In this document: positions 25,125 through 55,386 of the stretch, piece after piece
How positions within the stretch are numbered: the first letter of the stretch is position 1
How the letters are laid out: each line of letters begins with the position of its first letter
Assembly: GCF_000720115.1 (NCBI RefSeq)
Contig: NZ_JOIR01000024.1
Span: 21,740 to 85,739, forward strand
Origin: Streptomyces sp. NRRL F-2580
Lineage (GTDB): Bacteria; Actinomycetota; Actinomycetes; Streptomycetales; Streptomycetaceae
Direction: 5' to 3'
DNA: 64,000 nt
Made by a program: the position numbers and the translations under genes
The notes under the pieces: model-generated
What the model was told of the DNA's origin: nothing
Database searches by the model: none
What the model saw: the letters and a program-made list of their open reading frames with translations, nothing else

Positions 25125-25436
25125 CTGAAGGGCTCCTGGGATCAGCGTGGCCTCGCGGCGACTCATTCGGCTGTGGCGTGCAGTGCGGCACGCGAGAAGA
25201 CATCGGCGCGTGAAACTATCAGAGAGTTGACACCGGCATCAATCGTTTTGATCACTTAACACTCCGTCAAGTAATGCGGAACCAAGGGTTCCTGTGGAAC
25301 ATGGTGCTCACGGAAATCCGCAGGGAACGGCCGATCCCTGAATGAGACAGGCTCTACGGAGATGCCGGATAAAACAGTCAGTCAAGACGTCTTGCCGACG
25401 CGTTTTCGGCGCGCCTCGGGCAGTCCGGACCGCTCC
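25125..25436 (-). promoter_or_regulatory. Intergenic with candidate promoter for the KS-ACP operon
   Basis: These 312 bp are AT-richer than the genes around. On the minus strand TTGATG (25237-25242) and GATAGT (25215-25220) are 16 nt apart, about 90 nt before the KS-ACP start. It is a reasonable but unproven promoter. No gene is seen here. Confidence 0.35.
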
Positions 25437-28431: not shown

Positions 28432-30312
28432 TCAGCGGTCGGCGGCCGCACCCACCGAGGTCGCCGCCTGGGCCCGTACGCGCTCGACGAAGTCACCGAG
28501 CCGCGGTGCTTCGAACAGGGCGCGCGCGCCGATCTGTGCACCGATCTCCGTGCGCGTGCGGCGGATGACCTTCGAGACCAGCAGGGAATGTCCGCCGAGG
28601 TCGAAGAAGTCGTCCCCGAGGCCGACTTCGGGGACTCCGAGTTCTTCGGCCCAGATGCCCGCCACGACCGCCTGCAGGGAATCGCCCTGGGGGGCGTCCT
28701 GCGCGGCGGGGGAAGCGGTGCGGGAGGCCTCGCGGGCCTGTTCGAGCAGGGCCTTGCGGTCGACCTTGCCGTTGGGCGTCAGCGGCATGGAGTCCACGAT
28801 GCGCAAGTCGTTGGGAACCATGTGGCCGGGCAGCCGCTCGGTCAGGAACGCCCGCAGGCCGTCCGTGCCCGGGCCGCCGGGTCGTACGGTCGCCCATGCC
28901 AGCAGCCGGGATCCCACCGAGTTGCCGGTGTCGGTCGCGACGCAGGCGTCGATGACGTCCGGGTGGGCCTTCAGCGCCGCACCGACTTCGCCCAGTTCGA
29001 CGCGGTAGCCGCGGACCTTCACCTGCTCGTCGCGCCGCCCCACGTAGAAGAGCCGTCCGTCGGCGTCCGCTCGCGCGAGATCGCCGCTGAGGTAGGTCCG
29101 CCGCTGGTCGTCGGGACCCCAGGCCGCCATGCGGAAGCTGCGCGCGGTGGCGTCGTCGTCGCCGAAGTACCCGCGTGCCAGGCCGGGCCCGGAGATCCAG
29201 ATCTCGCCGACCTCCCCCACGGGGGTCGGTGCGCCGTCCTCGTCCCGCAGCGACACGTCCAGGTCGGGGAGCGGCACACCGATGGGGCTGCCCGCGCCGG
29301 CGGCGGCGTCCTGCGCCGTGATGGGGCAGTACGTGACGTGGACCGTCGTCTCGGTGATCCCGTACATGTTCACCACGCGCGGCTGCTCGTCGCCCCGGCG
29401 GGCGAACCATCCGCTCAGCGTGGCCGGGTCGAGGCGTTCACCTCCGAGCACGATCAGCCGCAGGCGGTCGAGGCCGGCGGGCCGCACCTCGTCGGCGCCG
29501 GTCAGTGCCGCCAGGGCCGAGGGCGTCTGGCTCAGTACCGTGACGCCTTCGCGGTCCATCAGGTCGAGCAGCTCGTCGGGGGCACGGGCCTCGTCGTCCT
29601 CGACGACGACGAGACGACCGCCGAACAGCAACGCCCCCCACATCTCCCACACGGAGAAGTCGAAAGCGTAGGAGTGCAGCATCGTCCAGACGTCCTCGGC
29701 ACCGAGGTCGTAGATCGCCGACGACTCGGCCATCAGCCGCGTGACGTTGCGGTGCGTGATCTTCACGCCCTTGGGCGTGCCGGTCGAGCCCGACGTGAAC
29801 ATCACGTAGGCGAGGTCGTCAGGGGCGACCTCGACGCTCAGCGCCGGAAGGTCCGAATCCGCGGCGTCGCCGACGAGCACGAACGATCCGGTGTGCCACG
29901 CCTTCGCCCGCACGACGAGTTCGTCGTCGGTCACGATCACGCCCGCCCCGACCCGTTCGGCGAGGCTCGCGTGGCGGGTGTCGGGGTACCGGGGGTCGAG
30001 CGGCACGTAGGCGGCGCCCGCCATCAGCACGCCGAGGATCGCGGGGATGACCAGGCGGCGCTGGACGAGCACCGGGACGAGGTCACCGGGGCGCACGCCT
30101 GCCGCGACCAGACGGGCGGCCATGCGTCCTGCCAGGTCGTGCAGTTCCTCGTAGGTCATGGAGGTTCCACCGGCGGTGAGCGCGGTGGCCCGGGGGCTCC
30201 CGGCGGCCTGACGGGCGAACCACGTGTGCAGCGTGTCTGCGGATGCCTCGGGCTTCGCCGTTGGACGCGCTAGGTCGTTGACTTCCGGCACAATTTCCCC
30301 CAGAGATTGCAT
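28432..30312 (-). CDS. NRPS module A-PCP (Thr-like adenylation code)
   Basis: A 626-residue protein. Residues 25-510 are an adenylation domain (MFTSGSTGTPKGVKITH; YGITETTVHVTY; TYLSGDLAR; LTPNGKVDRKALL). Residues 540-615 are a PCP with FFDLGGHSLLVSKV. Manual alignment to GrsA gives the binding-pocket residues D-F-W-S-V-G-M-V-H, differing from the Thr code DFWNVGMVH only at position 4, so Thr or a close analogue is likely. There is no condensation domain, so it supplies an amino acid to a C domain in trans or acts as a loading/modification platform. The upstream 431-bp gap contains a candidate promoter. Confidence 0.9.
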   Translation of the reverse strand: MQSLGEIVPEVNDLARPTAKPEASADTLHTWFARQAAGSPRATALTAGGTSMTYEELHDLAGRMAARLVAAGVRPGDLVPVLVQRRLVIPAILGVLMAGAAYVPLDPRYPDTRHASLAERVGAGVIVTDDELVVRAKAWHTGSFVLVGDAADSDLPALSVEVAPDDLAYVMFTSGSTGTPKGVKITHRNVTRLMAESSAIYDLGAEDVWTMLHSYAFDFSVWEMWGALLFGGRLVVVEDDEARAPDELLDLMDREGVTVLSQTPSALAALTGADEVRPAGLDRLRLIVLGGERLDPATLSGWFARRGDEQPRVVNMYGITETTVHVTYCPITAQDAAAGAGSPIGVPLPDLDVSLRDEDGAPTPVGEVGEIWISGPGLARGYFGDDDATARSFRMAAWGPDDQRRTYLSGDLARADADGRLFYVGRRDEQVKVRGYRVELGEVGAALKAHPDVIDACVATDTGNSVGSRLLAWATVRPGGPGTDGLRAFLTERLPGHMVPNDLRIVDSMPLTPNGKVDRKALLEQAREASRTASPAAQDAPQGDSLQAVVAGIWAEELGVPEVGLGDDFFDLGGHSLLVSKVIRRTRTEIGAQIGARALFEAPRLGDFVERVRAQAATSVGAAADR

Positions 30313-30743: not shown

Positions 30744-31514
30744 TCAGCCGGCCGGTTCGGCGATCGCGGCGAAGCGGCGCTCGACCGCCTCGACGTACTG
30801 CCGCCGGTTGACGGGATCGAAGAGGGCGAAGTGGCCGCCGGGGACGACGTGCACCTCGCACTCCGCGGCCGAGTGGGCGCCCCACCCCGCCAGCACGTCC
30901 TGGTTGACCAGACGGTCCTCTCGTCCGCACAGGACGGTGATGGGTGCGTCGATGCGCAGGCCCCTGCTCCGCTCGGCGCTCTCCCTGCCGAGCCTGAGGT
31001 CCGCGCGCAGGTTGTCCAGGAGGGCCGTGCGCCATGCCGTGTCCTCCAGGATCGCGGACGGCATGTCCCCGCCGAGTTCGAGCAGCCGCAGGACGTCCTC
31101 GTCGCTGGAGTGCTCGGAGAGCCAGCCGATGCCGTCGCGCGGCTCCTGCCCTGACGCGATCAGACCGACGCAGTGCTCGCCGAGGGCGTGCGCGAGGTGG
31201 AGACCGAGCGTCGCGCCCAGGCTGTGACCGAGTATCAGCGTGGGCAGTTCGGGCAGACGGATCGCCTCGAGGCTGGTGAGCACCTCGTCCAGGGTGGCGC
31301 CGGGCGGCTCGGTCCTGCGGCGCTCCCGGCCCGGGAGCGTGAGCCCGAGTATCTCGACGTCGTCGGGGAGATCACCGAGCAGCCGCAGGTAGCGGTTGGG
31401 ACCACCGCCGGAGTGCGGCACGACGAGGAGCCGGGCGCGGGGTACGGGCACGGGCTCCCCGTACGGTCGCAGCCGCGACCACCATGGTGGCTGGGCGGTC
31501 GTTCGAACGCGCAC
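30744..31514 (-). CDS. Type II thioesterase (canonical Ser)
   Basis: This 256-residue alpha/beta hydrolase is of the NRPS-associated type. It has LLVVPHSGGGPNRYLRLLGD at the N-terminus, nucleophile elbow ILGHSLGATLGLH, acid region VLCGREDRLV and catalytic His in PGGHFALFDP. It removes wrong or stalled groups from carrier domains. It begins with GTG, preceded by AGGAAGG 9 nt upstream. It is the last gene of the main operon, 18 bp after the PPTase gene. The cluster therefore has two type II thioesterases with different nucleophiles (see 20418-21167). Confidence 0.93.
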   Translation of the reverse strand: MRVRTTAQPPWWSRLRPYGEPVPVPRARLLVVPHSGGGPNRYLRLLGDLPDDVEILGLTLPGRERRRTEPPGATLDEVLTSLEAIRLPELPTLILGHSLGATLGLHLAHALGEHCVGLIASGQEPRDGIGWLSEHSSDEDVLRLLELGGDMPSAILEDTAWRTALLDNLRADLRLGRESAERSRGLRIDAPITVLCGREDRLVNQDVLAGWGAHSAAECEVHVVPGGHFALFDPVNRRQYVEAVERRFAAIAEPAG

Positions 31515-31532
31515 TGTGGGGGCCTTCCTGGA

Positions 31533-32258
31533 TCAGATGTGGTGGCGATGGACGGCGACGGCGGCGGCCATGTCGTCCGCTTCGAGGGGAACGTCGGCGA
31601 TCTGCCAGCCCGGCGGGGCGGCCGGCTCCGGTGTCGCGCCGACGTAGTCCTCCGAGAGCGGCCGCGAGAGACCGGTTCCGATGCCCTTCAGGTAGGCCTC
31701 CTTCCGGCACCAGGTGCGGGTGAAGGCCCGTGGCAGCTCGGACCCGGGGAGCTTGCCCAGTTCGGCGCGCTCGGTGGGGTGCAGGGACCCGACGAGCGGC
31801 GCCGCGGCCTCGGCGGTCGCGGTCTTCTCCACGTCCACGCCCACGGGCGTGGCTGCCACGGCGATGAGTCCCAGGTGCTCGCTGTGGCTCAGGGAGAAGT
31901 GCAGGGGATCGCCCGATACGCCCGGCCGGCCGTGCGGTTCGCCGCAGCCCGGGCAGGCCCGGCGGGTGAACGGCACGGCGGCCGGGGCCACACCGAGGAG
32001 ACGGCCGAGGACGAGCCGCAGCGCGAAGTGGGTCACCGCGTACGTGTCCCTGTCCTCGCTGCGGCGGAACCGGGCGGCCCGGGCCCGCTCCTCCTCGCTG
32101 AGCACCGCCGCCAGGGCGCCTTCCCACTCCCCCGCCAAGTCCTCGGCGTGCACCAGGAACAGGGAGGGACAGGGTTCCGGTCCCGCTACCGGGACCGGAC
32201 CCCCTGACGGCAGTGCGATGGCGTCTCCCGGGGAGAGCCGCACGACGGACGGGATCAC
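31533..32258 (-). CDS. Sfp-type 4'-phosphopantetheinyl transferase
   Basis: This 241-residue PPTase has the conserved motifs HFSLSHSEHLGLIAVA, GVDVEK (Mg-binding Asp/Glu) and WCRKEAYLKGIGTGLS. It transfers phosphopantetheine from CoA to the carrier domains of the cluster's synthetases. The GTG start at 32258 shares GTGA with the stop of the NDPK-like gene (4-bp overlap), which fixes the start. Its presence in the operon makes the cluster self-sufficient for carrier activation. Confidence 0.93.
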   Translation of the reverse strand: MIPSVVRLSPGDAIALPSGGPVPVAGPEPCPSLFLVHAEDLAGEWEGALAAVLSEEERARAARFRRSEDRDTYAVTHFALRLVLGRLLGVAPAAVPFTRRACPGCGEPHGRPGVSGDPLHFSLSHSEHLGLIAVAATPVGVDVEKTATAEAAAPLVGSLHPTERAELGKLPGSELPRAFTRTWCRKEAYLKGIGTGLSRPLSEDYVGATPEPAAPPGWQIADVPLEADDMAAAVAVHRHHI

Positions 32259-33229
32259 GTCAGCCAGGAGTCCGGTGCCGGGTTGCCGATCACCTTGATG
32301 GCGCCGGGCTCGTCCTCCTGGATGTGGCTGGCGCCCACGATGGCGAGATCCCAGACGTCCAGCTTGAGTTCGAGCGAGCCGAGGACACTGGCGAACTCCC
32401 GCCACGGCAGCAGTTCACCGCGCTCCGCACCCTCCAGCCACGCCCGGATCCGCCCCGCGGGCTCCGCGAGGTCGGGACGCTCGGCGGCGCGCTCCGCGAC
32501 CAGCTCGTCGATGCGCCGCGCGGCGGCCGCACGGTCGAGGATGACCCCGCCGAACTCGCCGGAGTGCAGCACGCGGTCGAGGAGCTCCTCGTCCGCCGGG
32601 GACGGGACGCCTTCCGCCAGCCGGCCGAGCAGCCGGTGACGCGGTGCGGGATCCATCAGCAGGTTCAGCTCGCGGACCAGGTCGGCCGGCTCATCGGCAC
32701 AGTGGATCATGCTGCACAGCCGGTTGGGCCGCTTCAGGAGGCTGCGCAGGCTGTCCGCGGCCTGCTGCGAGATGTCCGCCTTCCCCTTGAGCGAGCTGAG
32801 GTGGACGGTCGCGGGGACGGCGTGGCTGCCGTGGCTGCGCAGGAGCAGCATCAGGGTGGGGCCGGCCTGCAGCACGATGTCGTTGACGGCGAGGCGGTCC
32901 AGCGAGGCCAGTGTGTGCTGGTGCCGCCAGAGTTCACGGCCCGTGTGCCGGTTGAAGTGGAACATCTCGGCGCCGACGACGCTGAAGTCGTGATCGGCGA
33001 GGAAGTCCAGGATGACCTTGAGCTTCCCGGTGGCCATGCCGTCGGGCTTGACCAGCATCAGCGCGGAGCGGTGCAGGACCTCGTCCCGCCGGCCGCCGAA
33101 GGCCTCCTGGCACTCGCTCAACCCCTCGCGGAAACAGGTGTCGAGCTCGTAGTGGTACGCCTTGACCGGCATACGCGTGAGGGTGCTCCAGTTCGTGGGG
33201 CCCATGTCGCCTATCACTCTCTCGTTCAT
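32255..33229 (-). CDS. Nucleoside-diphosphate-kinase-like protein with C-terminal extension
   Basis: A 324-residue protein whose residues 55-190 resemble NDP kinase: ALMLVKPDGMATGKLKVILD (KPDG at 61-64), VVGAEMFHFNRH, and LCSMIHCADEPADLVREL, placing His176 where NDPK carries its phospho-histidine (normally NxxHGSDS). The nucleotide-contact residues around the histidine are changed. Both the 50-residue N-terminus and the 130-residue C-terminus are foreign to NDPK (about 140-150 residues). The gene lies between an HprK-like kinase and the PPTase. A role in phosphoryl transfer within the pathway is inferred; classical NDPK housekeeping is unlikely. Confidence 0.75.
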   Translation of the reverse strand: MNERVIGDMGPTNWSTLTRMPVKAYHYELDTCFREGLSECQEAFGGRRDEVLHRSALMLVKPDGMATGKLKVILDFLADHDFSVVGAEMFHFNRHTGRELWRHQHTLASLDRLAVNDIVLQAGPTLMLLLRSHGSHAVPATVHLSSLKGKADISQQAADSLRSLLKRPNRLCSMIHCADEPADLVRELNLLMDPAPRHRLLGRLAEGVPSPADEELLDRVLHSGEFGGVILDRAAAARRIDELVAERAAERPDLAEPAGRIRAWLEGAERGELLPWREFASVLGSLELKLDVWDLAIVGASHIQEDEPGAIKVIGNPAPDSWLT

Positions 33230-33247
33230 GGTGGTGCGGGTCCGGTG

Positions 33248-34192
33248 TCAGCCGTGCAGCACTGCTGCCAGGCGTTCGAAATTGCTGTCCAGGTCGGTGG
33301 AGAGACCGAACTGGAGGACTGTCATGTCCGAGAGCCGCGCGCGCAGGTCGCTCTCCACCTGCTCCAGTACGGCGGGGCTGTCCTTGCCCGCCGCGAAGTC
33401 GCTGCGGCACAGGTCGAGTACCGCGTCGACCTCCAGTGGCCGGACCGTCTCGTGCTCCCGGGTCAGGACGAGCAGGGCCCGCGGGCGTACGGCGGACCGC
33501 AACCGGCTCTCGTAGACGGCGGGCCATTCGACGCGCTTCTTGTCGCGCGCGGGAACCTGTGCGGCCGGCGCGTCGGCGAGCTCCGGCCTGCTCTTGATCA
33601 GAGCCGGGTCGAGGTAGGCACAGCGGGGGTATCCCCAGAACCGGCCCTCCGTGTCGTCGATGTGCCGCATCATGGCGTCCTCGCCGGCGAAGTCCGCGCC
33701 CTTGAAGAGGCCCCATGCGGTGAACGTCGACTTGCCGACACCGCTGTCCGCGGTCACCAGGGCGGCGCGGCCGTCGACGGACAGCGCGCCGGCGTGCAGC
33801 CCGTAGTGCCGGTCGGAGCGGAGCGTGAGGACGAGGAAGGCCTTCTCGACGAGCCAGCGGCCCCACACGACGGGGTCGTCGAGGTCGGAGCGGGCCAGCG
33901 TCACCCGTACCGTCCAGCGCCCGGGGGTGATCGCCGCCCGGGAGCTTCCGGTGTCGAGGACGACCACGTCCGAGGTGTCCCAGTGCTCCGGGAAGTAGGG
34001 CGGCGGCACGGCTTCGCGGTCCGTGTCGGTCAGCTCGATGGACAGGTGCACGGTCTGCGGCGTCCACGGCGACCGGGTCGCGTCGCCGGTCCGCAGCGGG
34101 GCACCGAAGAGCCGGCCCACCACGGCCTCGGCTTCCGGGGGCGCCGTGCAGGCGACCTGGTACCCGTAGAACTCGTAAAGGTCTTCTCGCAT
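33248..34192 (-). CDS. HprK-like kinase (stand-alone)
   Basis: A 314-residue protein resembling the C-terminal kinase domain of HPr kinase/phosphorylase. P-loop ADSGVGKST at 148-156 follows the strand HAGALSVDGRAALVT, and a second acidic motif is FAGEDAMMRH. The N-terminal part (EFYGYQVACTAPPEAEAVVG, then VWGRWLVEKAFLVLTLRSDR) is shared with the C-terminal half of the FkbH fusion protein at 39617-41695, so the two are paralogues. HprK-like enzymes phosphorylate Ser hydroxyls in HPr or in lasso peptides (paeninodin type). Here the target may be a carrier-bound Ser/Thr or the product. It lies 3 bp from the aminopeptidase gene. Confidence 0.82.
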   Translation of the reverse strand: MREDLYEFYGYQVACTAPPEAEAVVGRLFGAPLRTGDATRSPWTPQTVHLSIELTDTDREAVPPPYFPEHWDTSDVVVLDTGSSRAAITPGRWTVRVTLARSDLDDPVVWGRWLVEKAFLVLTLRSDRHYGLHAGALSVDGRAALVTADSGVGKSTFTAWGLFKGADFAGEDAMMRHIDDTEGRFWGYPRCAYLDPALIKSRPELADAPAAQVPARDKKRVEWPAVYESRLRSAVRPRALLVLTREHETVRPLEVDAVLDLCRSDFAAGKDSPAVLEQVESDLRARLSDMTVLQFGLSTDLDSNFERLAAVLHG

Positions 34193-34195
34193 GCG

Positions 34196-36814
34196 CTATC
34201 CCCTCCGGGCGCGGTCGGTGGCCTGTGCGCGCAGGGCGCGCCCGGCGTCGTCGTACTGCTCCAGGATCAGTCGGCGCAGCGCGGGCGGGGCCGCGGCCTG
34301 GCGCTCCAGCCAGACTTCGGCCTGGTCGAGCGCGGGGCCGTCCACGACCGCCGGGTAGAGACCGAGGACGATCTGCTTGGCCATCTCGTGGCTCCTGGTC
34401 TCCCACACGCCGAGGACCGCTTCGAAGTACCGGTCGGTGTACGGCGCCAGCAGCGCGGGGTCGAGGGTCTCGGCGAAGCCCGCGATGACCGCCCGCTGGA
34501 GCTGGTTGGGCAGGTCGCCGCGGTCCACCACGGCCGCCCAGGCGGCTGCCTTGGCCTCCGCGTCGGGCCGGGCGGCACGGGCCGTCGCCGCGTGGCACTC
34601 GCCCGCGGGTGTGGGGTCACGGCGCTGCTCGGCCGCGATGCCGTCCTCGTCGAGGCGTCCGGCGGCGGCCAGGCGCACCACGATCGCCCAGCGCACCTCG
34701 GCGTCCACGGCGAGCCCGGGAACCGGGGTCGCTCCGTCGAGGAGCGCGGCGAGCAGGTCGAGGTGCGCGTCGGTACGGGCGGCCGTGACGAAGGCCCGCG
34801 TCCAGGCGAGTTGGTGGTCACTGCCGGGCTCGGCGGCGCGCAGCCGTTCGAGGGCGGCGGCCGCCCAGTCGGCCGTGAGGCGCACGCGCTCGGCCGGGTC
34901 GGTGAAGTGGTTCAGGGCTTGCAGGACCTGGCGGTGCAGCGACTCCACGACGCCGATGTCGCTCTCCGAGCCGATCGCCGAGAGCACCAGGCTCAGGTAG
35001 TCCCGGGCTGCCAGCTCTCCGTCGCGCGTCATGTCCCACGCCGCGGCCCAGCACAGGGCGCGGGGCAGCGGGTCGGCGAAGGAGCCGAGGTGCCGCGTCA
35101 GAGCGCGCAGGGACACCTCGTCGAAGCGGACCTTGGCATAGCTGAGGTCGTCGTCGTTCAGCAGCACCACGTCGGGGCGGCGGCGCCCCACCATGTCGGG
35201 TACGTCCGTGTACGCGGCGGCGGCGACGTCCAGTTCCGTGCGGTGCGTGCGCCGCAGCCGCCCGTCCGCGCCGTCCAGCGTGTAGGAGCCCACCGCGATG
35301 CGGTGCGGGCGCAGCGTCGCCTCGCCCGGGACGCCGGGCGGCAGGGCCTGTGCCTCCTGGCGGATGCGGAAGGCGGTGATGATGCCGTCCGCGTCCGTTT
35401 CGATCTCGGGCCGCAGCACGTTGATCCCCGCGGTCTCCAGCCACTGCTTCGACCAGGTGCCCAGGTCGCGCCCGGAGGCCTCCTCCAGTGCCCCCAGCAG
35501 GTCCGTCAGCCGCGTGTTGCCGTAGGCGTGAGCGGCGAAGTAGGCGCGTACGCCCTCGAAGAAGGCGTCCATGCCGACGTACGCGACCAGCTGCTTCAGG
35601 ACGGAGGCGCCCTTGGCGTAGGTGATGCCGTCGAAGTTGACGAGGACGTCGTCGAGGTCGTGGATCTCCGCCACGACGGGGTGGGTGGAGGGCAGTTGGT
35701 CCTGCCGGTACGCCTTGGCCTTCTGGTGGTTGGCGAACGTCGTCCACGAGTCGGCCCACCGCGGGTCGGGCCCGAGCGCCTGGCAGGCGAACGAACTGTA
35801 GGTGGCGAAGGACTCGTTGAGCCAGAGATCGCTCCACCACGCCATGGTGACCAGATCGCCGAACCACATGTGGCTGAGCTCGTGGAGGATCGTCGCGGCC
35901 CGCTTGCGGTGGGCCGCTTCGGTGGCCCGCGAACGGAAGACGTACTTCTCGTGGAACGTGACGGCGGCCGCGTTCTCCATGGCCCCCGCGTTGAAGCCCG
36001 GGACGAAGATCTGGTCGTACTTCTCGAAGGGGTAGGGGTGGCCGAACCGGTCCTCGAACCAGTCGAAACCCTGCCGCGTCACCGCGAAGATCTCGTCGGG
36101 GTCGAGGTGTTCGGCCAGGCTCTTCCTGCAGTACAGGCCGAGCGGGATGGTGCGCTCGCCGCGCCGGTGCTCCGCCCGCACGGCGTGGTAGGGGCCGGCC
36201 ACGAGGGAGACGACATACGTGGAGAGCCTGGGTGTGCGCCCGAACGACCACACCGTGGCGGCGCCTTGGCGTCCGTCCCCGTGCTCTTCGGTGGCCTCCG
36301 CGACGGTGACGGCGGCCGAGTTGGAGACCACCGTCCAGTCAGCGGGCGCGGTCACGGTGAAGCTGAACTCCGCCTTCAGATCGGGCTGGTCGAAGCAGGC
36401 GAAGACCCGCCGGGCGTCCGCGACCTCGAACTGGGAGTAGAGGTAGATGTTGCCGTCGACCGGGTCGGTGAAGCGGTGCAGCCCTTCGCCGGTGTTCGTG
36501 TACGCACAGTCCGCCACCACCCGCACCTCGTTGCGGCCGGCGACGAGGTGCGAGAGCTCGATCCGGGAGTCCCGGAAGACCCGGTCCGCGGCCAGGGCAC
36601 GGCCGTTGACCACGACCTCCCGCACCCGGGGGGCCCGCAGGTCGAGGAAGACCGGCGCGTCCGAGTCCGCGCAGTCGAAGCCGATCTCCGTGACCGACGG
36701 GAAGGTGTCGGAGCCGGCGGCCTCACGCAGGTCGAGCGTGATGTCGTACGTGTCCACGGTGACCGCGTGAGAGCGGTGTTCGGCCTCCTGGGCCGTCAGG
36801 TTCGTCCCGGGCAT
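34196..36814 (-). CDS. M1-family aminopeptidase N
   Basis: This 872-residue cytosolic metallopeptidase has no signal peptide. It has the substrate motif GAMEN (NAGAMENAAAVTFHEKYVF), the zinc site HELSHMWFGDLVTMAWWSD with the third ligand in WLNESFATY, and a helical C-terminal ERAP1-like domain. It is full length and apparently active, cleaving N-terminal residues from peptides. Streptomyces genomes already carry a housekeeping PepN, so a copy between kinase and phosphatase genes (3-bp gaps) implies a dedicated role in trimming an N-terminal residue from the product or inactivating it within the producer. Confidence 0.93.
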   Translation of the reverse strand: MPGTNLTAQEAEHRSHAVTVDTYDITLDLREAAGSDTFPSVTEIGFDCADSDAPVFLDLRAPRVREVVVNGRALAADRVFRDSRIELSHLVAGRNEVRVVADCAYTNTGEGLHRFTDPVDGNIYLYSQFEVADARRVFACFDQPDLKAEFSFTVTAPADWTVVSNSAAVTVAEATEEHGDGRQGAATVWSFGRTPRLSTYVVSLVAGPYHAVRAEHRRGERTIPLGLYCRKSLAEHLDPDEIFAVTRQGFDWFEDRFGHPYPFEKYDQIFVPGFNAGAMENAAAVTFHEKYVFRSRATEAAHRKRAATILHELSHMWFGDLVTMAWWSDLWLNESFATYSSFACQALGPDPRWADSWTTFANHQKAKAYRQDQLPSTHPVVAEIHDLDDVLVNFDGITYAKGASVLKQLVAYVGMDAFFEGVRAYFAAHAYGNTRLTDLLGALEEASGRDLGTWSKQWLETAGINVLRPEIETDADGIITAFRIRQEAQALPPGVPGEATLRPHRIAVGSYTLDGADGRLRRTHRTELDVAAAAYTDVPDMVGRRRPDVVLLNDDDLSYAKVRFDEVSLRALTRHLGSFADPLPRALCWAAAWDMTRDGELAARDYLSLVLSAIGSESDIGVVESLHRQVLQALNHFTDPAERVRLTADWAAAALERLRAAEPGSDHQLAWTRAFVTAARTDAHLDLLAALLDGATPVPGLAVDAEVRWAIVVRLAAAGRLDEDGIAAEQRRDPTPAGECHAATARAARPDAEAKAAAWAAVVDRGDLPNQLQRAVIAGFAETLDPALLAPYTDRYFEAVLGVWETRSHEMAKQIVLGLYPAVVDGPALDQAEVWLERQAAAPPALRRLILEQYDDAGRALRAQATDRARRG

Positions 36815-36817
36815 GCT

Positions 36818-37555
36818 TCAGGCGTCCCCGCCGGTGAGGAGCCGGGACCGCAGCCGGTCGACCGTGGCGTCCGTGAGCTGGACCCGGTCCTTGAGGTAGC
36901 CGTGTACGGATCCGTAGCGGGATTCGAGGTCGGCCAGGACCAGCTCCATGATCTCCGCGGGGGCGCGTCCGTAGCCCGGCCACTTCATGACCCGGTCGGG
37001 GTTGGCGGTGTGCCAGTCCGCGAGCAGGCGCTCCGTGGCCAGCTCCGTCAGCTCGAAGTCCGCGAGCACGTCCTCGCGGTCCACTCCGAGCAGGGTGAGG
37101 ACGAACACCCCGATGAGCCCGGTGCGGTCCTTGCCCGAGGTGCAGTGGAAGACGACCGGGCCGGGGGCCCCGGCGATCTGCTCCAGGACCTGCCGGATCT
37201 CCTCGGCCCCGTCCTCGGTGACCTCGGCGAAGCGGTCGGCGAGGTAGCGCCACGGGTCGACGTCGGGGGAGATCTCCGCCTGGTCGTACGGCTGGTGCTC
37301 GATGCTCAGGTTGACGTAGTGGAAGCGCTCGGCCTCGGGCACCCGGCCCTTGGCCTCGATCTCCCAGGGATAGCGCAGGTCGATGACGGTCTGCACGCCG
37401 AGCTCCAGGAAGCGCTCCCAGTCGGCCCCCTGCAGCTTGCCGAGCGAGTCGGCCCGGTACAGCGTCTGCCAGGCGACGGTCCTGCCGTCGGCCGAGCGGT
37501 AGCCGCCCAGGTCACGGAAGTTGTGCAGTCGCTCGAACGCAACGTGCCGGTTCAT
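36818..37555 (-). CDS. Tyrosine-phosphatase-family phosphatase (CX5R)
   Basis: This 245-residue protein has the catalytic loop HCTSGKDRTG (Cys and Arg of CX5R) followed by a long hydrophobic helix, the N-terminal signature LHNFRDLGGYRSADGRTVAW and the strand VQTVIDLRYPWEI. This matches the bacterial protein-tyrosine/serine phosphatase family, which also contains phosphoinositide and small-molecule phosphatases. It lies in the same operon as two HprK-like kinases and so may remove the phosphate they add. Its ATG overlaps the CYTH stop (ATGA). Cytosolic; no signal peptide. Confidence 0.9.
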   Translation of the reverse strand: MNRHVAFERLHNFRDLGGYRSADGRTVAWQTLYRADSLGKLQGADWERFLELGVQTVIDLRYPWEIEAKGRVPEAERFHYVNLSIEHQPYDQAEISPDVDPWRYLADRFAEVTEDGAEEIRQVLEQIAGAPGPVVFHCTSGKDRTGLIGVFVLTLLGVDREDVLADFELTELATERLLADWHTANPDRVMKWPGYGRAPAEIMELVLADLESRYGSVHGYLKDRVQLTDATVDRLRSRLLTGGDA

Positions 37556-38055
37556 CGGGTCTCTCCTTGTTCGTCGGGCACCGCTCGTGCCGAAGCCGCG
37601 AGTACACGGTTGCTCCAGGCCGGACTGCCGGTCACTTCCTCGCCGAACCAGTCGGGCGGCTCGAAGCTCCTGGCCTCCTCCAGAGTGTCGAACTCGACCT
37701 CGACCACGCGCAGTCCGGCCAGGGCCCCGTCGTACTCGTCGACGGTCGCCACGTGGTGCTCCAGGGGAACGTTCCAGCGGTACTTGCTCAGGCAGTCGCC
37801 TCCGGCCAGATCCCAGAGCTGCGTGAAGACCGCGTCGTCGATCTCGAACTCGACTTCCTGGCGCACCATGGCACCCGAAGCGGCGTCGAAGGTCTTCACC
37901 GTCATGACGCGGGCGTCCCGCTTGGACCTGACCCGGAACTCCACGGGGGCGCCCTGGGGCGACAGATAGGCCTGGCGCAGCTGCTCCCCGGTCGTACCCG
38001 GGGGCACCCGCCAACCGTCCGCCACCGTGAACTTGCGCTCGATCTCCAGACTCAT
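37552..38055 (-). CDS. CYTH-domain protein (triphosphatase-like)
   Basis: This 167-residue protein has the ExExK signature LEIERKF at residues 3-9 and the alternating basic/acidic strands of the triphosphate tunnel fold (FRVRSKRDARVMTVKTF; RQEVEFEIDD; CLSKYRWNVP; VVEVEFDTLEEARSF). CYTH proteins bind triphosphates: inorganic or thiamine triphosphatases and class IV cyclases. It is coupled by ATGA overlaps to the A-domain gene before it and the phosphatase gene after it. Inference: it hydrolyses tripolyphosphate or a triphosphorylated intermediate in the pathway. Confidence 0.88.
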   Translation of the reverse strand: MSLEIERKFTVADGWRVPPGTTGEQLRQAYLSPQGAPVEFRVRSKRDARVMTVKTFDAASGAMVRQEVEFEIDDAVFTQLWDLAGGDCLSKYRWNVPLEHHVATVDEYDGALAGLRVVEVEFDTLEEARSFEPPDWFGEEVTGSPAWSNRVLAASARAVPDEQGETR

Positions 38056-39605
38056 CGCACAACCACCCGCAGCGCGCTGTCGGTGGCGAGCCGCGCCCGG
38101 TCGAGCTTCCCCGACGGGGCGAGCGGCATCTCCGAGACCACCACGAGCCGGTTGGGCAGCATGTGCGCGGGCAGCCGCGTGCGGCACGCCTCGCGCAGCT
38201 GCGCGGTGAGCTGCTCGGTCGCCGTCCGGTCCGGGGCGAGGGCCACATAGGCGACGAGGAGCGACTCGCCGCCCGCGGTCTCCTCGGTCAGGACGACCGC
38301 GTCGAGGACGTCGGACTCGGCGCGCAGGGCCGCCTCCACCTCGCCGAGTTCGACGCGGAACCCGCGCAGGCTGATCTGCCGGTCGTTGCGGCCGAGGTAC
38401 TCGTACGTGCCGTCGGGCAGCCGCCGGGCGACATCACCCGTGCGGTACCAGGTGCGCGTCTCGTCGTCGCCGGCCAGCTTGAGCCGGGGGAACCGCTCCG
38501 CCGTCAGGTCCGGCTGCCGGAAGTATCCGTCGGCGAGCCCCAGGCCCGCGATGTACACCTCGCCCGGCTCGCCCTCGGGCGCCGGCTGCCCCTCCGGGGT
38601 CAGCACGGCCATCCGGTGGTGCGCCAGCGGCTCACCGATCCAGGTGCCGGAACCGTCGGACGCCACCCGGTCCTCGGTGAGCGCGCCGAAGGTGGTGTGC
38701 ACGGTCGTCTCGGTGATGCCGTACATGTTGACCAACGTCTCGGCTCCCGGACGCAGTTGCATCCACCGGCGCACCGACATGGGGTCCAGCTGCTCGCCGC
38801 CGAAGACCACGTAGCGCAGGGAGAGCGGGACGGGAGCGCGCTCGTACGCCTTCGGCATGTACTTGAAGAAGCTCGGGACCGCGTTGAGCACCGTGACCCG
38901 TTGCTCGGCGAGGAGTTCGAGGAACGCCGCGGGACGACGGGCGGTCTCCGGCGGCACGATCACGAGCCGCCCGCCGAACAGCAGGCTGCCCCAGATCTCC
39001 CATACGGAGAAGTCGAAGCTGTAGCTGAAGTACTGCGTCCACGTGTCGTCGGGACCGAACTCGAACGGGCCGTCCGAGCAGGACCTGAACAGTTCGAGGA
39101 CCGCGCTCTCGGGGACGGCCACCCCCTTGGGCTGCCCCGTCGACCCCGACGTGTAGATCACGTAGACCGGGGTGCCCTCGGGCCTCGGCAGGGGTTCGGC
39201 GGATGCGGCCGCGTCACCGTCCGAGCGCACCACCCGGTCGAAACCGGCGGGCAGCGCGGCGTTGTCCGGCGCCGAGATCACCGCGCGCACGCCGCTGTTC
39301 CGCACCATGAAGGCGAGCCGGTCCGCCGGGTACGAGGGGTCCAGCGGAACGTAGCCGCAGCCGTGACCGAGGATGCCGAGGATCGCCGCGACGACTTCCC
39401 AGCCTCGTTCGAGGCTGATGCCCACCAGGTCCCCGGGTCGTACGCCGTGGAGCGCGAGGCCGGCGCGGTACTCCCGGGCCGCGGTCTCGAGTTCGCGGTA
39501 TGTGATGTCGAGCGGGCCGTCCGTGATCGCCACGGTGTCGGGGCGCTGGGCGGCCTGCCCGGCGAACACCTCGTAGAGGGAGGTGGCCTGCTTCAGCTCG
39601 TGCAT
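38052..39605 (-). CDS. Stand-alone adenylation domain (Thr code)
   Basis: This 517-residue adenylation protein has YTSGSTGQPKGVAVPE, YGITETTVHTTF, WYRTGDVARRL and APSGKLDRARL. It ends directly after the A10 motif with no carrier domain. Pocket residues by hand alignment to GrsA are D-F-W-N-V-G-M-V-H(K), essentially the canonical threonine code. It must load a carrier in trans, such as the free PCP (48510-48833) or the carrier at 21190-21450. AGGAGA is 4 nt upstream of ATG 39605. It is coupled to the CYTH gene downstream and follows the FkbH-HprK fusion gene by 11 bp. Confidence 0.92.
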   Translation of the reverse strand: MHELKQATSLYEVFAGQAAQRPDTVAITDGPLDITYRELETAAREYRAGLALHGVRPGDLVGISLERGWEVVAAILGILGHGCGYVPLDPSYPADRLAFMVRNSGVRAVISAPDNAALPAGFDRVVRSDGDAAASAEPLPRPEGTPVYVIYTSGSTGQPKGVAVPESAVLELFRSCSDGPFEFGPDDTWTQYFSYSFDFSVWEIWGSLLFGGRLVIVPPETARRPAAFLELLAEQRVTVLNAVPSFFKYMPKAYERAPVPLSLRYVVFGGEQLDPMSVRRWMQLRPGAETLVNMYGITETTVHTTFGALTEDRVASDGSGTWIGEPLAHHRMAVLTPEGQPAPEGEPGEVYIAGLGLADGYFRQPDLTAERFPRLKLAGDDETRTWYRTGDVARRLPDGTYEYLGRNDRQISLRGFRVELGEVEAALRAESDVLDAVVLTEETAGGESLLVAYVALAPDRTATEQLTAQLREACRTRLPAHMLPNRLVVVSEMPLAPSGKLDRARLATDSALRVVVR

Positions 39606-39616
39606 GGTTCTCCTGG

Positions 39617-41695
39617 TCACTCGGCGGACTTCGTCGGCAGGGCGACGAGGGCCGCGTGCAGCCTGTCGTAGCTCTCGTCCAGGTCGTCGGAGACCTCGAA
39701 CTCCCACAGCGGCAGCCCCGCCAGGACCTCCCTGAGGTCCTCCTCCACCGCGGCGACGCCTTCGGCGCTCTTCGCGGTGGCGTAGTCCTCGCGGCAGCGG
39801 TCGAGGGCCTCTTCGATGTCCAGCTCGCGCGGTGCACCGCCCTCGCCCCTGACCAGGAAGACCAGGCAGGAGGGACGGGCCCGCGACAGCAGCCGGTCTT
39901 CCAGCGCCGCGGGGACGGTGACGCGGCACTTGGCACCGTTCTCGATCGGCGCGGCGGTCGCGTCCTGGAGCGCCGTGCTGCGGGCGATCATCTCGGGGCT
40001 CAGGTACAGGGCGCGGGGGTAGCCCCACAGCACACCGCCGGGCTCGTCCATGTTCCTGGCCAGGATGTCCTCGCCCACCAGGCGCGCCCCGCGGTGCAGC
40101 GCCCAGTACGTGAACGTCGACTTGCCCACGCCCGCGGCGGCGGTCAGGACGGCGACCCGTCCATCGGCCTCGATGGCCCCCGCGTGCAGCGGGTAGCTGC
40201 GCGGGGAGCGGCAGACGAGGTACAGGAAGAGGCGCTCGAGGATCCACCGGCCCCATACGGCGGAGCTCTCCAGGTCGGCCCGGGCCAGCACGAGTTCACC
40301 CGAGGCGCTCGTCGGGTCGAACACGCAGCGGGAGCTGACCGTGTCGATCACGATGGGGTCGCCCGTCATCACGTCCAGGTTGTGCGGCGGGTTCACGGCT
40401 TCACCGGCCGGACCGTCCTGCACCGAGAAACCGAGCCGCACGGTGCGGCTGTGGGCCCCGGTCAGGGCGTCATCGGCCACGGCCGGGCCGAAGAAGTCCC
40501 GCACCACGCCGCTCGCGGCGACGTCGTACGAGCATTCCACGCGGTAGCCGTAGCACTCGTGCACGGAGTGGATCCGGTCGGCGCCGAGCGTCGGGGCCGT
40601 GACCCGCATGGTGGTCGAGACCTCCTGGGCGGTGGGGACGAGGTGAAGCCGCTGGATGCCGGATTCCGCGCCGTCGGCCGCGTCGGATCCGGCTGCCGGG
40701 CCGCAGTCCGGGCACGGCTGCTGGGTGAAGCCGGCGAACCTGTAGGCCACTTCCATGATCCGGTTGCGGTCGGTGGCGCGGAAGTCGGCGGTCAGGTGCA
40801 CGCCGGCGCGGTGCGCCTGGGCCATGAGCCAGCGCAGGATCGTCGCGCCGGTGCCGAAAGAGACCACGCGGCAGGACGTGGCCAGGAGCTTGAGGCGCCA
40901 GCTCTCCCTGCCGCGCTCCAGCAGCATCACGCCGACGGCACCGTGGCTGCCGAAGCGGTCGGTCAGGCTCATGACGAGGACGTCGTGGTCCGGGTCGGCG
41001 AGCAGGGCCCGCAGGTCGGCGTCCGAGTAGTGCACGCCGGTCGCGTTCATCTGGCTCGTGCGCAGCGTCAGCTCTTCGACCCGTGCCAGATGCTCGTCGC
41101 CCGCGTGCTCGATGACCAGGCGCAGGTCGAGGGACTTGAGGAACTCCTCGCTGGATCCGACGTGTTCCTGCTCGGCCTGTTCGCGCTGGAAGCCCGCCCG
41201 GTACATCGCACGGCGGTTCGCCGCGTCCTGGGTGACATGGGCGGGGCTGAACTCCGGCAGCCCCGTCAGCTCCGTGGCGCGCTCTGCCTCGTAGGTCCGC
41301 ACGGCGGGCAGCTCATGGGTCACCTCGGCACGCTCGGTGGGCTGGTCGTCGATGAAGGCGACGACCGACTCGGCGAACTGGAGCTGGCTCGCGATGGTGC
41401 GGACGGAGTCCGACTTGCGGCCCCAGCCGATCTGCGGGAGGACGAAGTACTCGGCCATCCCGAGCTTCTCCAGCCGCTCCCAGGCGAGGTCGTGGTCGTT
41501 GCGGCTGGCGACGGACTGCAGGATGCCCCGCGCGTCCAGCTCCACCACGGTGCGCCGGATCTCCTCGGGCAGCTCGACCTCTTCGTCTTCGAGGATCGTG
41601 CCGCGCCACAGGGTGTTGTCCAGGTCCCAGACCAGACACTTGACCAGGGGCTGGTCGGCTTCGGCCGGCGTCGGCCCGGCTGCGGATTGCGACAT
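39617..41695 (-). CDS. FkbH-type HAD protein fused to an HprK-like kinase domain
   Basis: A 692-residue two-part protein. Residues 18-325 are a complete FkbH-family glyceryl-carrier synthase: VWDLDNTLWRG with the HAD nucleophile Asp24, SVASRNDHDLAWERL, DDQPTERAEV, and the GNAT-like half SFGTGATILRWLMAQAHRAG. After a linker with CPDCG, residues 363-692 resemble the stand-alone HprK-like protein: ECYGYRVECSYD, VWGRWILERLFLYLVCRSPR, P-loop AAAGVGKST at 519-527. FkbH dephosphorylates 1,3-bisphosphoglycerate onto an ACP. An AGGAGG 11 nt before in-frame Met363 (40609) could allow separate initiation of the kinase part. I do not know this fusion from characterised pathways. Confidence 0.88.
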   Translation of the reverse strand: MSQSAAGPTPAEADQPLVKCLVWDLDNTLWRGTILEDEEVELPEEIRRTVVELDARGILQSVASRNDHDLAWERLEKLGMAEYFVLPQIGWGRKSDSVRTIASQLQFAESVVAFIDDQPTERAEVTHELPAVRTYEAERATELTGLPEFSPAHVTQDAANRRAMYRAGFQREQAEQEHVGSSEEFLKSLDLRLVIEHAGDEHLARVEELTLRTSQMNATGVHYSDADLRALLADPDHDVLVMSLTDRFGSHGAVGVMLLERGRESWRLKLLATSCRVVSFGTGATILRWLMAQAHRAGVHLTADFRATDRNRIMEVAYRFAGFTQQPCPDCGPAAGSDAADGAESGIQRLHLVPTAQEVSTTMRVTAPTLGADRIHSVHECYGYRVECSYDVAASGVVRDFFGPAVADDALTGAHSRTVRLGFSVQDGPAGEAVNPPHNLDVMTGDPIVIDTVSSRCVFDPTSASGELVLARADLESSAVWGRWILERLFLYLVCRSPRSYPLHAGAIEADGRVAVLTAAAGVGKSTFTYWALHRGARLVGEDILARNMDEPGGVLWGYPRALYLSPEMIARSTALQDATAAPIENGAKCRVTVPAALEDRLLSRARPSCLVFLVRGEGGAPRELDIEEALDRCREDYATAKSAEGVAAVEEDLREVLAGLPLWEFEVSDDLDESYDRLHAALVALPTKSAE

Positions 41696-41697
41696 GG

Positions 41698-42684
41698 TCA
41701 GATCTCCCAGAGTGTGGCGGCCCAGGCGGCGACCGGGCTGTTGTTCAGGACGAGCACGTGATCGCCGTGCCGCAGTCCGCCCTCGGCGAGCAGCAGTTGC
41801 AGGTTGAGCACGACGTCCATCGCCCCCAGGTGGCCGAACTCCGTGAGATGGCGTCGGCAGACGGGGTGGATGGGGAGTCCGAGCAGGGTCTCGTAGAAGT
41901 CGAACGCCCCCGAGGTGACGTTCTGCATCAGCGTCGCGGCGACGTCCTGCTTGCCGATCCCCGCGTCGGCGAGCACCTCGTCGACCAGGCGGCCCAAGCG
42001 CTGCCGGCTGTGCAGGGCCAGCTCGAACCGGTAGCGGTCCGCCGACTGGCACTCCTCGCGCCACTCGTACCAGGGCGCGGACTTGTAGTCGACGCGGAAG
42101 AGGTCGTGGAAGGTGCCGTCGCTCTCCATCCGGTGGGCGCGCAGCACCGGACGGCCACCGCGCACCATGGTCATGGCGTACGCGCCGTCACCGATCACGG
42201 TGACCGGGTAGCGCACCCGGTCGGCCCCCGTGGGGCGGCTGGCGTGGGCGATCACCGCGCTGTCGCGGCCCGGGTCAGCTGCGATCAGGTCGCGGGCCAG
42301 CGCCCACGCCGCGCTGGAGCCGGTGCAGCCGAGGCCGTCCACGGTGAAGGAGAAGGTACCGGTCAGGCCGGCCTCCGCCTGCACCTGGCCGACGTCCGAA
42401 CCGAGCAGCACGTCCGGGGAGCGGGGGCTGACCAGGATCAGCAGATCCGGGTGATCGGTCTCCGCCAGGCCGAGCCCGCGCACGGCCTCGGCCGCGAGGC
42501 CGGCGGTGGCGCGCCCGTCGAACACGCCGACGGTCTCCACGCCCGAGCCCCGGGCGAACTCGGCTTCCTCGTGGCCGAGCAGACCCGTCTCGGGCAGATC
42601 GGCCACCTTCGTCCGTTCGTCCGGCAGCAGGCAGTGGATGGCACCCAGGCCGATCTCGTCGCCGTTACCGTCACGCTTCGTCAT
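41698..42684 (-). CDS. KASIII-like ketosynthase/acyltransferase
   Basis: This 328-residue thiolase-fold protein has nucleophile Cys120 in TVDGLGCTGSSAAWALAR. At the usual His/Asn positions it has LMQNVTSGAFDF and FGHLGAMDVVLN, so the KASIII Cys-His-Asn triad is altered. Proteins of this kind include CerJ-type acyl transferases that move acyl groups from ACP rather than condensing them. Located among the FkbH/I/J/K genes, it may carry the hydroxylated C3 unit from its ACP to the synthetase and so compensate for the missing AT. It overlaps the dehydrogenase gene (ATGA). Confidence 0.78.
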   Translation of the reverse strand: MTKRDGNGDEIGLGAIHCLLPDERTKVADLPETGLLGHEEAEFARGSGVETVGVFDGRATAGLAAEAVRGLGLAETDHPDLLILVSPRSPDVLLGSDVGQVQAEAGLTGTFSFTVDGLGCTGSSAAWALARDLIAADPGRDSAVIAHASRPTGADRVRYPVTVIGDGAYAMTMVRGGRPVLRAHRMESDGTFHDLFRVDYKSAPWYEWREECQSADRYRFELALHSRQRLGRLVDEVLADAGIGKQDVAATLMQNVTSGAFDFYETLLGLPIHPVCRRHLTEFGHLGAMDVVLNLQLLLAEGGLRHGDHVLVLNNSPVAAWAATLWEI

Positions 42685-43790: not shown

Positions 43791-44086
43791 GAGCGGACCC
43801 CGTCCCGTAGCCGCTCGACGAGCGCCACCATGGCCTGCACGCTGCGGAAGTTGTCCATCCGCAGCTCGTCCCCCTGGACCGCCACGCCGTACGCCGTCTC
43901 CACGTGGACGACCAGTTCGAGGGAGAACAGGGAGGTGATCGCCCCGGAGGCGAACAGGTCGGTGTCGGGGGCCACCGGCACCTTCACGCGGCCCTCCAGG
44001 AAGGAGAGCAGCGCGGCCTCGATCTCGGCGGCGGTCGGCTGGGCGGAAGAGGTGGTGGACACGGTGATCAGGGGCCTCTCGGTCAT
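43787..44086 (-). CDS. FkbJ-like acyl carrier protein for the extender unit
   Basis: This carrier protein of 99 residues (start MTERPLITVS) has the motif DLFASGAITSLFSLELVVHV, where the Ser of AITS is the phosphopantetheine site. The pattern is like FkbJ/ZmaD carriers. A GTG at 44062 and a longer frame to 44185 are alternative starts; the longer one would translate 12-bp direct repeats (TCGGGTCAGGGT at 44110 and 44131) as Pro/Asp-rich sequence and is less likely. It should carry the glyceryl to hydroxymalonyl series of intermediates. Confidence 0.88.
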   Translation of the reverse strand: MTERPLITVSTTSSAQPTAAEIEAALLSFLEGRVKVPVAPDTDLFASGAITSLFSLELVVHVETAYGVAVQGDELRMDNFRSVQAMVALVERLRDGVRS

Positions 44087-44135
44087 GGGTCCCGAAGGGA
44101 CGGCGGTGGTCGGGTCAGGGTCCGGACGGGTCGGG

Positions 44136-55328: not shown

Positions 55329-55386
55329 GACGAGTGGCGTCTCTTGAGAGGTCGGATACGGGCGAGGGTCCGGCGCGTGGGCCACG

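What the first reader, a model, noticed from the sequence alone, without database searches (positions are those of the whole stretch)
30744..41695. Phosphate-handling cassette embedded in an NRPS/PKS operon
In one coupled operon lie two HprK-like kinases (33248-34192 and the C-terminal half of 39617-41695), an NDPK-like protein with His176 kept (32255-33229), a CYTH triphosphate-binding protein (37552-38055) and a CX5R phosphatase (36818-37555), next to an aminopeptidase and NRPS genes. Seen directly: the motifs and stop/start overlaps. Known: HprK-like enzymes phosphorylate Ser hydroxyls in HPr and in some lasso peptides. Inference: Ser/Thr hydroxyls of carrier-bound intermediates or the product are phosphorylated, perhaps as activation for elimination or cyclisation, or as a protective prodrug group removed by the phosphatase. 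I know of no characterised cluster with this set.
Basis: partly seen in the sequence, partly recalled or inferred. Interest (0 to 1): 0.92.

Follow-up and report, generated by a model that had tools for sequence, protein, structure and literature searches.

The report
Kinase pair grafted onto peptide assembly line
A soil bacterium's antibiotic-type assembly line carries two related kinases of an unusual fold, one fused to the enzyme thought to load a three-carbon unit, plus a third phosphate-transfer protein, suggesting that its molecule is phosphorylated while or after it is built, although no product or activity is yet known.

Summary
K1 models as a PEPCK/HprK fold (pLDDT 95.6); K2 is 42% identical. 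K1 and K2 form two well-separated clades and occur as a pair in 6 of 6 genomes reached. FkbH-K2 fusions recur in Streptomyces, Kitasatospora, Catellatospora, Micromonospora and a Frankiaceae MAG. An NDK-like protein (catalytic His in 29 of 29) accompanies them in the Streptomyces type and, by contig listings, in those last three. The 'cassette' is layered: two Lentzea clusters keep synthetases, FkbH set and both kinases, but lack NDK, CYTH, phosphatase and aminopeptidase. Close relatives of the backbone in other Streptomyces have none of these. So the kinases are an add-on to a conserved hydroxymalonyl-type assembly line; CYTH, phosphatase and aminopeptidase are a further, lineage-specific layer. 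Best reading: K1/K2 phosphorylate a hydroxyl of the carrier-bound or finished product, most likely in the FkbH-derived unit; self-resistance (as with the corramycin kinase) is the main rival. Product, substrate and activity are unproven. New variant of a known kind.

The parts
59699..62782 (+). NRPS A-T-C, divergent end of the cluster
   Evidence: Pfam; matched in G392 and G393 at 91 and 84% identity, not in G394
55387..57714 (-). FAD/NAD(P)-binding protein (PF13454), role unknown
   Evidence: conserved 72-93% in three relatives
53454..55385 (-). NRPS A-T; code DAFFLGVTFK (Val/Ile type, recalled)
   Evidence: also in Lentzea
48830..53473 (-). NRPS C-A-T-C
   Evidence: also in Lentzea
48510..48833 (-). 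stand-alone carrier protein (PF00550)
45001..48513 (-). PKS module KS-T-R: no acyltransferase domain listed, terminal thioester reductase
   Evidence: TIGR01746, 243 bits over cut-off 213
44136..45032 (-). 3-hydroxyacyl-CoA dehydrogenase-like (hydroxymalonyl-ACP route)
43787..44185 (-). acyl carrier protein (PF00550)
42681..43790 (-). acyl-CoA dehydrogenase-like (hydroxymalonyl-ACP route)
41698..42690 (-). KASIII-like protein, proposed trans-acyltransferase; Cys122 and GHLGAMD at 286
   Evidence: (aligns with ChlB3 GHLGASD)
40718..41647 (-). FkbH domain (glyceryl loading and HAD phosphatase) of the fusion protein
   Evidence: TIGR01686, 339 bits; DLDNTL and SCRV motifs
39617..40600 (-). K2: HprK/PEPCK-like kinase domain fused behind FkbH (start approximate)
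   Evidence: 42% identical to K1; separate clade; same fusion in the proteins, FkbH confirmed in 11 of 12
38052..39620 (-). stand-alone A domain, code DFWNVGMVHK (Thr type, recalled)
37552..38055 (-). CYTH protein with EIERK (like 2fbl/3typ)
   Evidence: not found in Lentzea
36818..37555 (-). CX5R phosphatase, Y_phosphatase3 (PtpB-like), HCTSGKDR
   Evidence: not found in Lentzea
34196..36814 (-). PepN-type M1 aminopeptidase with active-site motifs; three related copies elsewhere in the genome
33248..34192 (-). K1: HprK/PEPCK-like kinase
32255..33229 (-). NDK-like protein: NDK domain plus helical C-terminal extension; His176 invariant in 29 of 29 rows
31533..32258 (-). 4'-phosphopantetheinyl transferase (start as called; the part 31533-32195 was searched)
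   Evidence: matched in G392 only
30744..31514 (-). type II thioesterase
28432..30312 (-). NRPS A-T, code DFWSVGMVHK (Thr-like, recalled)
22761..25166 (-). PKS KS-T, no acyltransferase domain listed
22414..22764 (-). PqqD-like protein
   Evidence: PF05402, 32.4 bits over cut-off 23.4
21443..22417 (-). F420-dependent luciferase-like oxidoreductase
   Evidence: TIGR03560, 270 bits over cut-off 231

Best explanation
The locus is an NRPS-PKS cluster whose AT-less KS modules are fed in trans by a self-contained hydroxymalonyl-type cassette. FkbH loads glyceryl on the ACP, HCDH and ACAD oxidise it, and the KASIII-like protein hands it on. The main chain is released by a thioester reductase. Onto this backbone a lineage of actinobacteria has added two paralogous PEPCK/HprK-fold kinases (K1 and K2) and, in the non-Lentzea lineages seen, an NDK-like phosphotransferase. 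K1 and K2 most likely phosphorylate hydroxyl group(s) of this pathway's own molecule, and the FkbH-K2 fusion makes the FkbH-derived three-carbon unit (on its carrier, or after condensation) the likeliest site. The CX5R phosphatase, CYTH protein and aminopeptidase are a further layer of the Streptomyces type, probably for maturation or self-protection. Shown here: gene content, conservation, predicted fold of K1 and of the NDK domain, fusion, two-clade history, sister clusters without kinases. Inferred: kinase activity, substrate, timing, trans-acyltransfer, product.
For: K1 model is a PEPCK/HprK fold. P-loop, His133 and the E/D pair are present; His133, K154, S155 and T156 are invariant in 33 rows. 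Both kinases occur in 6 of 6 genomes reached and fall on two sides of a split with 100/99 support, each side holding Streptomyces and Lentzea members (39 rows). FkbH-K2 fusion: one search lists 12 proteins of 617-699 residues; FkbH is confirmed by NCBIfam in 11 of 12, and the twelfth (P0048) has HAD and weak HprK matches. One search's length window excluded stand-alone K2. NDK-like genes share contig length with K1 and FkbH-K2 in Catellatospora (210669), M. haikouensis (228400; its K1 is listed without a name) and the Frankiaceae MAG (105574), two NDK copies in the first two. All 16 stretches are under purifying selection. The same kind of backbone exists without kinases, so the kinases decorate rather than build it.
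Against: No activity, substrate or metabolite is known. K1 and K2 fall far below the curated HprK cut-offs. FkbH is fused to an A domain, not to K2, in L. aerocolonigenes, so fusion may only reflect operon neighbours. Sister clusters carry the FkbH-type set without kinases, so nothing proves that this unit is the target. NDK-like relatives occur in other loci of genomes without a true HprK match, so its link to K1/K2 is not exclusive. The X. bovienii amicoumacin cluster lacks the kinase and phosphatase and still makes amicoumacins, which shows that a kinase inside such a cluster need not be biosynthetic.
Confidence: 0.45

Rival explanations
1. Self-resistance: the kinases inactivate the finished product inside the cell and the CX5R phosphatase (or an external one) reactivates it, with the aminopeptidase as duplicated target or prodrug-trimming enzyme.
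For: Precedents: corramycin is inactivated by kinase ComG (PMC10996006, passages read). For amicoumacin a putative kinase amiN, an alkaline phosphatase amiO and peptidase AmiB are named, and the X. bovienii cluster does without amiN and amiO (PMC5055758, passages read), so they are optional there, as the kinases are here. The phosphatase is in all four Streptomyces-type clusters, and the aminopeptidase is a paralogue, 66% identical to the nearest other copy in its genome.
Against: Two kinases kept as a pair on both sides of an old split, one fused to the loading enzyme FkbH: resistance kinases are usually single and free (recalled). No phosphatase, aminopeptidase or CYTH match within 60 kb in Lentzea.
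Confidence: 0.25
2. Building-block role: K2 prepares or re-phosphorylates the substrate of FkbH (an acyl phosphate or phosphoglycerate other than glycolytic 1,3-bisphosphoglycerate), so a different three-carbon unit is loaded.
For: FkbH-K2 fusion; PEPCK-type fold handles small carboxylates (function recalled).
Against: Sister clusters with ACP, ACAD, KAS3 and FkbH lack K2, and K2 is a free protein in Lentzea, where FkbH is fused to an A domain in L. aerocolonigenes. Does not explain K1 or NDK.
Confidence: 0.12
3. Protein-level control: K1/K2 phosphorylate a serine of a carrier protein, the PqqD-like protein or a synthetase, as HprK does with HPr, to regulate the line.
For: HprK acts on a small carrier-sized protein (recalled). 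The window has a PqqD-like protein, and HprK-related A systems carry a PqqD relative (recalled).
Against: No PqqD match among the six proteins around the L. aerocolonigenes kinases that I scanned; the rest of that region was not scanned. A dedicated regulator pair in so rare a cluster would be unusual (judgement).
Confidence: 0.08
4. No functional unit: CYTH, phosphatase, aminopeptidase and perhaps NDK are passengers in the operon, unrelated to the kinases.
For: They are not found in Lentzea clusters; NDK-like genes have other homes.
Against: Same order in the window and three relatives, 4-base overlaps on both sides of CYTH in the window, dN/dS 0.16-0.34 for these four genes; NDK-like on contigs with K1/K2 in several lineages.
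Confidence: 0.1

Closest known systems
HPr kinase/phosphorylase and PEP carboxykinase (PEPCK-like fold)
   Different: Below Pfam and NCBIfam cut-offs; sits in an NRPS-PKS operon, in a pair, one copy fused to FkbH.
HprK-like kinases of lasso peptide clusters
   Same: HprK-type kinase in natural-product biosynthesis (recalled; one search lists lasso peptide papers that hold the term 'HPr kinase', listing only).
   Different: Here the host is an NRPS-PKS line; lasso enzymes were not searched for specifically.
Hydroxymalonyl-ACP cassettes (zwittermicin, amicoumacin/xenocoumacin type)
   Same: FkbH, ACP, 3-hydroxyacyl-CoA dehydrogenase and acyl-CoA dehydrogenase together; the amicoumacin table lists methoxymalonate, 3-hydroxyacyl-CoA dehydrogenase and acyl-CoA dehydrogenase functions.
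   Different: AT-less KS modules with a KASIII-like protein in the cassette; FkbH fused to a kinase.
Amicoumacin AmiN/AmiO/AmiB and corramycin ComG
   Same: Kinase (and, for amicoumacin, phosphatase and peptidase) genes inside NRPS-PKS clusters.
   Different: ComG is reported as aminoglycoside-phosphotransferase-like; here two kinases of PEPCK/HprK type, plus NDK-like and CYTH.
Nucleoside diphosphate kinase
   Different: About 115-residue helical C-terminal extension; 20 bits against an equivalog cut-off of 155; distant relatives sit in several other loci.
ChlB3/CerJ-type KASIII-like acyltransferases
   Same: KAS3 C-terminal part aligns with ChlB3 around GHLGAxD (acyltransferase role recalled).
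   Different: Proposed to move a hydroxymalonyl-type unit between carriers; not tested.

Membership tests
HPr kinase/phosphorylase (HprK) | Curated HMM score (PF07475, TIGR00679/TIGR04352/TIGR04355) | tested here: not met
   K1: no Pfam hit, 18.7-20.8 bits against 200; K2: 11 of 33.3 and 26.9 of 200
HPr kinase/phosphorylase (HprK) | PEPCK/HprK-type catalytic fold | tested here: met
   for K1; K2 only by 42% identity
HPr kinase/phosphorylase (HprK) | P-loop, catalytic His and acidic pair in order (motif meaning recalled) | tested here: met
HPr kinase/phosphorylase (HprK) | Phosphorylates Ser of HPr | not testable with these tools
   needs assay
FkbH (glyceryl-ACP loading) | TIGR01686 above cut-off, HAD DxD motif | tested here: met
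   339.4 bits, cut-off 146.65; DLDNTL
Hydroxymalonyl-ACP cassette | FkbH + ACP + HCDH + ACAD adjacent | tested here: met
   kept in Lentzea and in several sister clusters
Hydroxymalonyl-ACP cassette | Hydroxymalonyl-ACP actually formed | not testable with these tools
   needs carrier mass spectrometry
Nucleoside diphosphate kinase | NDK fold and catalytic His | tested here: met
Nucleoside diphosphate kinase | Nucleotide-binding residues of canonical NDK kept | tested here: inconclusive
   scripts did not recover the housekeeping NDK for alignment
CYTH triphosphate tunnel family | PF01928 over cut-off and ExExK | tested here: met
   26.7 of 23.2 bits; EIERK
Amicoumacin-like kinase/phosphatase self-resistance | Kinase of the same family as AmiN or ComG | not tested
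   neither sequence was compared; ComG is reported as APH-like, K1 is PEPCK/HprK-like
Lasso peptide cluster | Precursor and lasso cyclase/protease genes | not tested
   not searched for specifically

The most novel reading that the evidence does not exclude
On-line phosphorylation in an NRPS-PKS: PEPCK-fold kinases (K2 physically joined to the FkbH loader, with K1) phosphorylate the alpha-hydroxyl or its enol on the carrier-bound hydroxymalonyl-derived unit. The NDK-like protein, using its phospho-His, extends this to a di- or triphosphate, with CYTH as the triphosphate-handling safeguard, giving a peptide-linked nucleotide-like or enol-phosphate product class.
Probability: 0.1. Interest if true: 0.88.

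Novelty: new variant of a known kind. Interest (0 to 1): 0.6.

Why it matters
If K1/K2 act as proposed, PEPCK/HprK-fold kinases would join the tailoring enzymes of modular assembly lines, and an FkbH-kinase fusion would mark clusters for phosphorylated products by simple genome mining. The natural contrast set (Streptomyces type with NDK/CYTH/phosphatase, Lentzea type with kinases only, sister clusters without kinases) makes the role directly testable. The NDK-like family, seen here also beside AfsA, PEP-synthase-like and AMP-ligase genes and near a YcaO gene, looks like a wider group of biosynthetic phosphotransferases.

Tried and rejected
One search used the wrong strand (shadow frame); repeated correctly. 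In one search, 11 of 392 genomes passed E 0.001; the 10 besides the own genome were rejected as P-loop matches (at most 29.6 bits over 44-82 residues), so I count 1 of 392. Class and family scans gave 1 of 394 (own) and 2 of 297 (the two known Lentzea) at E 1e-15; in these scans only the best few candidates per genome were scored. No plasmid hit. Foxicin (PMC5318452, passages read) was considered as a relative and rejected: its FkbH sits in a modular PKS, and the only kinase in the part of the gene table seen is a two-component sensor. Naming the product from A-domain codes was given up: Val/Ile and Thr types are readable, the C-A-T-C and A-T-C codes are not. The codes were read on recalled GrsA motif positions. 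Literature: in the listings of searches I saw no title or abstract about HprK-like kinases in an NRPS or PKS cluster; several of these matched hundreds of papers or more (over 600,000), of which only the top rows were shown. Passages were seen of PMC5318452, PMC10996006, PMC5055758 and PMC6429109 only; no paper was read whole. The library holds open-access papers only. Comparison with the housekeeping NDK failed. A UbiA-like label that I gave by eye to a gene in L116 found no Pfam match and is withdrawn. PTM05 in the protein listings has the contig length of the Streptantibioticus record behind G394 (477198) and is not counted as a separate case.

Full report
Observation. The operon runs well beyond the stated interval: A-T, C-A-T-C, T, KS-T-R, HCDH, ACP, ACAD, KASIII-like, FkbH-K2, A, CYTH, phosphatase, PepN, K1, NDK-like, PPTase, TEII, A-T and, after a sugar-type ABC transporter (named by eye except for the ATPase), KS-T, PqqD-like, F420-dependent oxidoreductase, T and MFS.

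How rare and how conserved. The genome-contig scan gave 5 loci: Streptomyces sp. NBC_01481, S. capoamus, Streptantibioticus parmotrematis, Lentzea aerocolonigenes and L. indica. These 5 genomes and the window's own each carry exactly two HprK-like matches. Only the own genome of 392 Streptomyces had a true match (10 further short matches discounted), 1 of 394 in the class sample and 2 of 297 in the Lentzea family sample, both already known. The protein search listed 36 relatives (only 8000 candidates were scored).

Layers. In the three Streptomyces-type relatives the order from A-T (53454) to TEII is that of the window, except that the PPTase was matched only in G392; in G394 the A-T/KS-T pair lies on the other side of the cluster. 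In both Lentzea the A-T, C-A-T-C, T, KS-T-R, HCDH, ACP, ACAD, KAS3, FkbH, an A domain, K1 and a free K2 are present. In L. aerocolonigenes FkbH and A are one frame, and an MFS transporter, a luciferase-like oxidoreductase and a flavin reductase lie between A and K2. CYTH, phosphatase, PepN and NDK are not found in 60 kb of either, and NDK-like is not found in either genome. The L. indica contig shows several reading-frame breaks in large genes, which look like sequence errors. That is an inference from listings; the contigs were not read, and whether they have CYTH, phosphatase or aminopeptidase is unknown.

Sister clusters without kinases. KAS3 relatives of 54-74% identity occur in 12 other genomes of the 392. 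FkbH lies beside KAS3 in 10 of these 12. In the 10 regions read (15.6-40 kb each; G048 and G175 were not read), KS-T-R is seen in 7, and none has a match to K1, the K2 part, NDK, CYTH, phosphatase or PepN at E 1e-5. G383 and G253 share with Lentzea the order A-T, C-containing protein, T, KS-T-R, HCDH, ACP, ACAD, KAS3, FkbH, A, MFS, oxidoreductase, but then have a second KASIII-like gene where L. aerocolonigenes has kinases (in G383 confirmed by Pfam, followed by a thioesterase-SAM synthetase fusion). The trans A code is DPFF[VI]IVVAK in Lentzea, G383 and G386 but DFWNVGMVHK in the Streptomyces type. So the kinases are an optional decoration of a shared kind of backbone.

Mechanism. The KS-T-R and KS-T proteins show no acyltransferase domain. 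FkbH, ACP, HCDH and ACAD are the set known for hydroxymalonyl-ACP (recalled; similar functions in the amicoumacin table). The KASIII-like protein aligns with ChlB3 around GHLGAxD, which fits a trans-acyltransferase. The fusion of K2 to FkbH (FkbH confirmed in 11 of 12 proteins) and the absence of the kinases from otherwise similar clusters together suggest phosphorylation of a hydroxyl in the FkbH-derived unit or of the product carrying it. I hold this at 0.45. Self-resistance is next at 0.25, backed by ComG and by the optional amicoumacin kinase and phosphatase genes. The in-cluster PepN, with three related copies elsewhere (66, 53 and 42%), could be a protected target or a trimming peptidase.

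Limits. All functional statements are inference. could list only proteins of 0.55-1.75 times 692 residues, so stand-alone K2 was outside it; four free K2-clade proteins (P0031-P0034) and the Lentzea ones exist. dN/dS values are simple Nei-Gojobori estimates. Gene calls in relatives come from my own simple script. No metabolite is assigned.

Noticed in passing
L112-L119 (about 9-11 kb in each); window 32255-33229: A wider NDK-like family with a kept HxxD[ED]PxDxxRE signature sits in several other loci of genomes without a true HprK match (beside AfsA, AMP-ligase and PEP-synthase-like genes in L116; near YcaO in L112).
   Followed up: partly
L085-L102 (G383, G386, G253, G337, G036, G185 and others): A recurrent NRPS-PKS backbone (T, KS-T-R with HCDH, ACP, ACAD, KASIII-like, FkbH, A) that I could not name: its KASIII-like marker is in 12 of 392 sampled Streptomyces besides the own genome, and KS-T-R in 7 of the 10 regions read.
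   Followed up: partly
window 25437-28305: A ribose-type ABC transporter (binding protein, permease, ATPase) lies between A-T and KS-T; a match to the ATPase-bearing frame is also in G392, but in G393 the two synthetase genes are nearly adjacent, so it looks inserted.
   Followed up: no
window 22414-22764 and 21443-22417: PqqD-like protein and F420-dependent luciferase-like oxidoreductase beside the second KS; the latter could reduce a beta-keto group as recalled for pepstatin.
   Followed up: partly
window 32213-37969 (+): An antisense open frame of 1918 codons over the cassette, a GC-rich coding shadow; one search matched it by mistake.
   Followed up: yes
window 19455-20291: 278-aa protein with no Pfam match, nucleotidyltransferase-like by eye.
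   Followed up: no
window 55387-57714: 775-aa FAD/NAD(P)-binding protein (PF13454 only in the first third); remainder unassigned.
   Followed up: no
L042-L043 (L. indica, G396): Several large genes of the cluster are split between frames, probably assembly errors.
   Followed up: no
L085:11371-13395 (-): A thioesterase fused to a full S-adenosylmethionine synthetase in the kinase-free sister cluster of G383.
   Followed up: no
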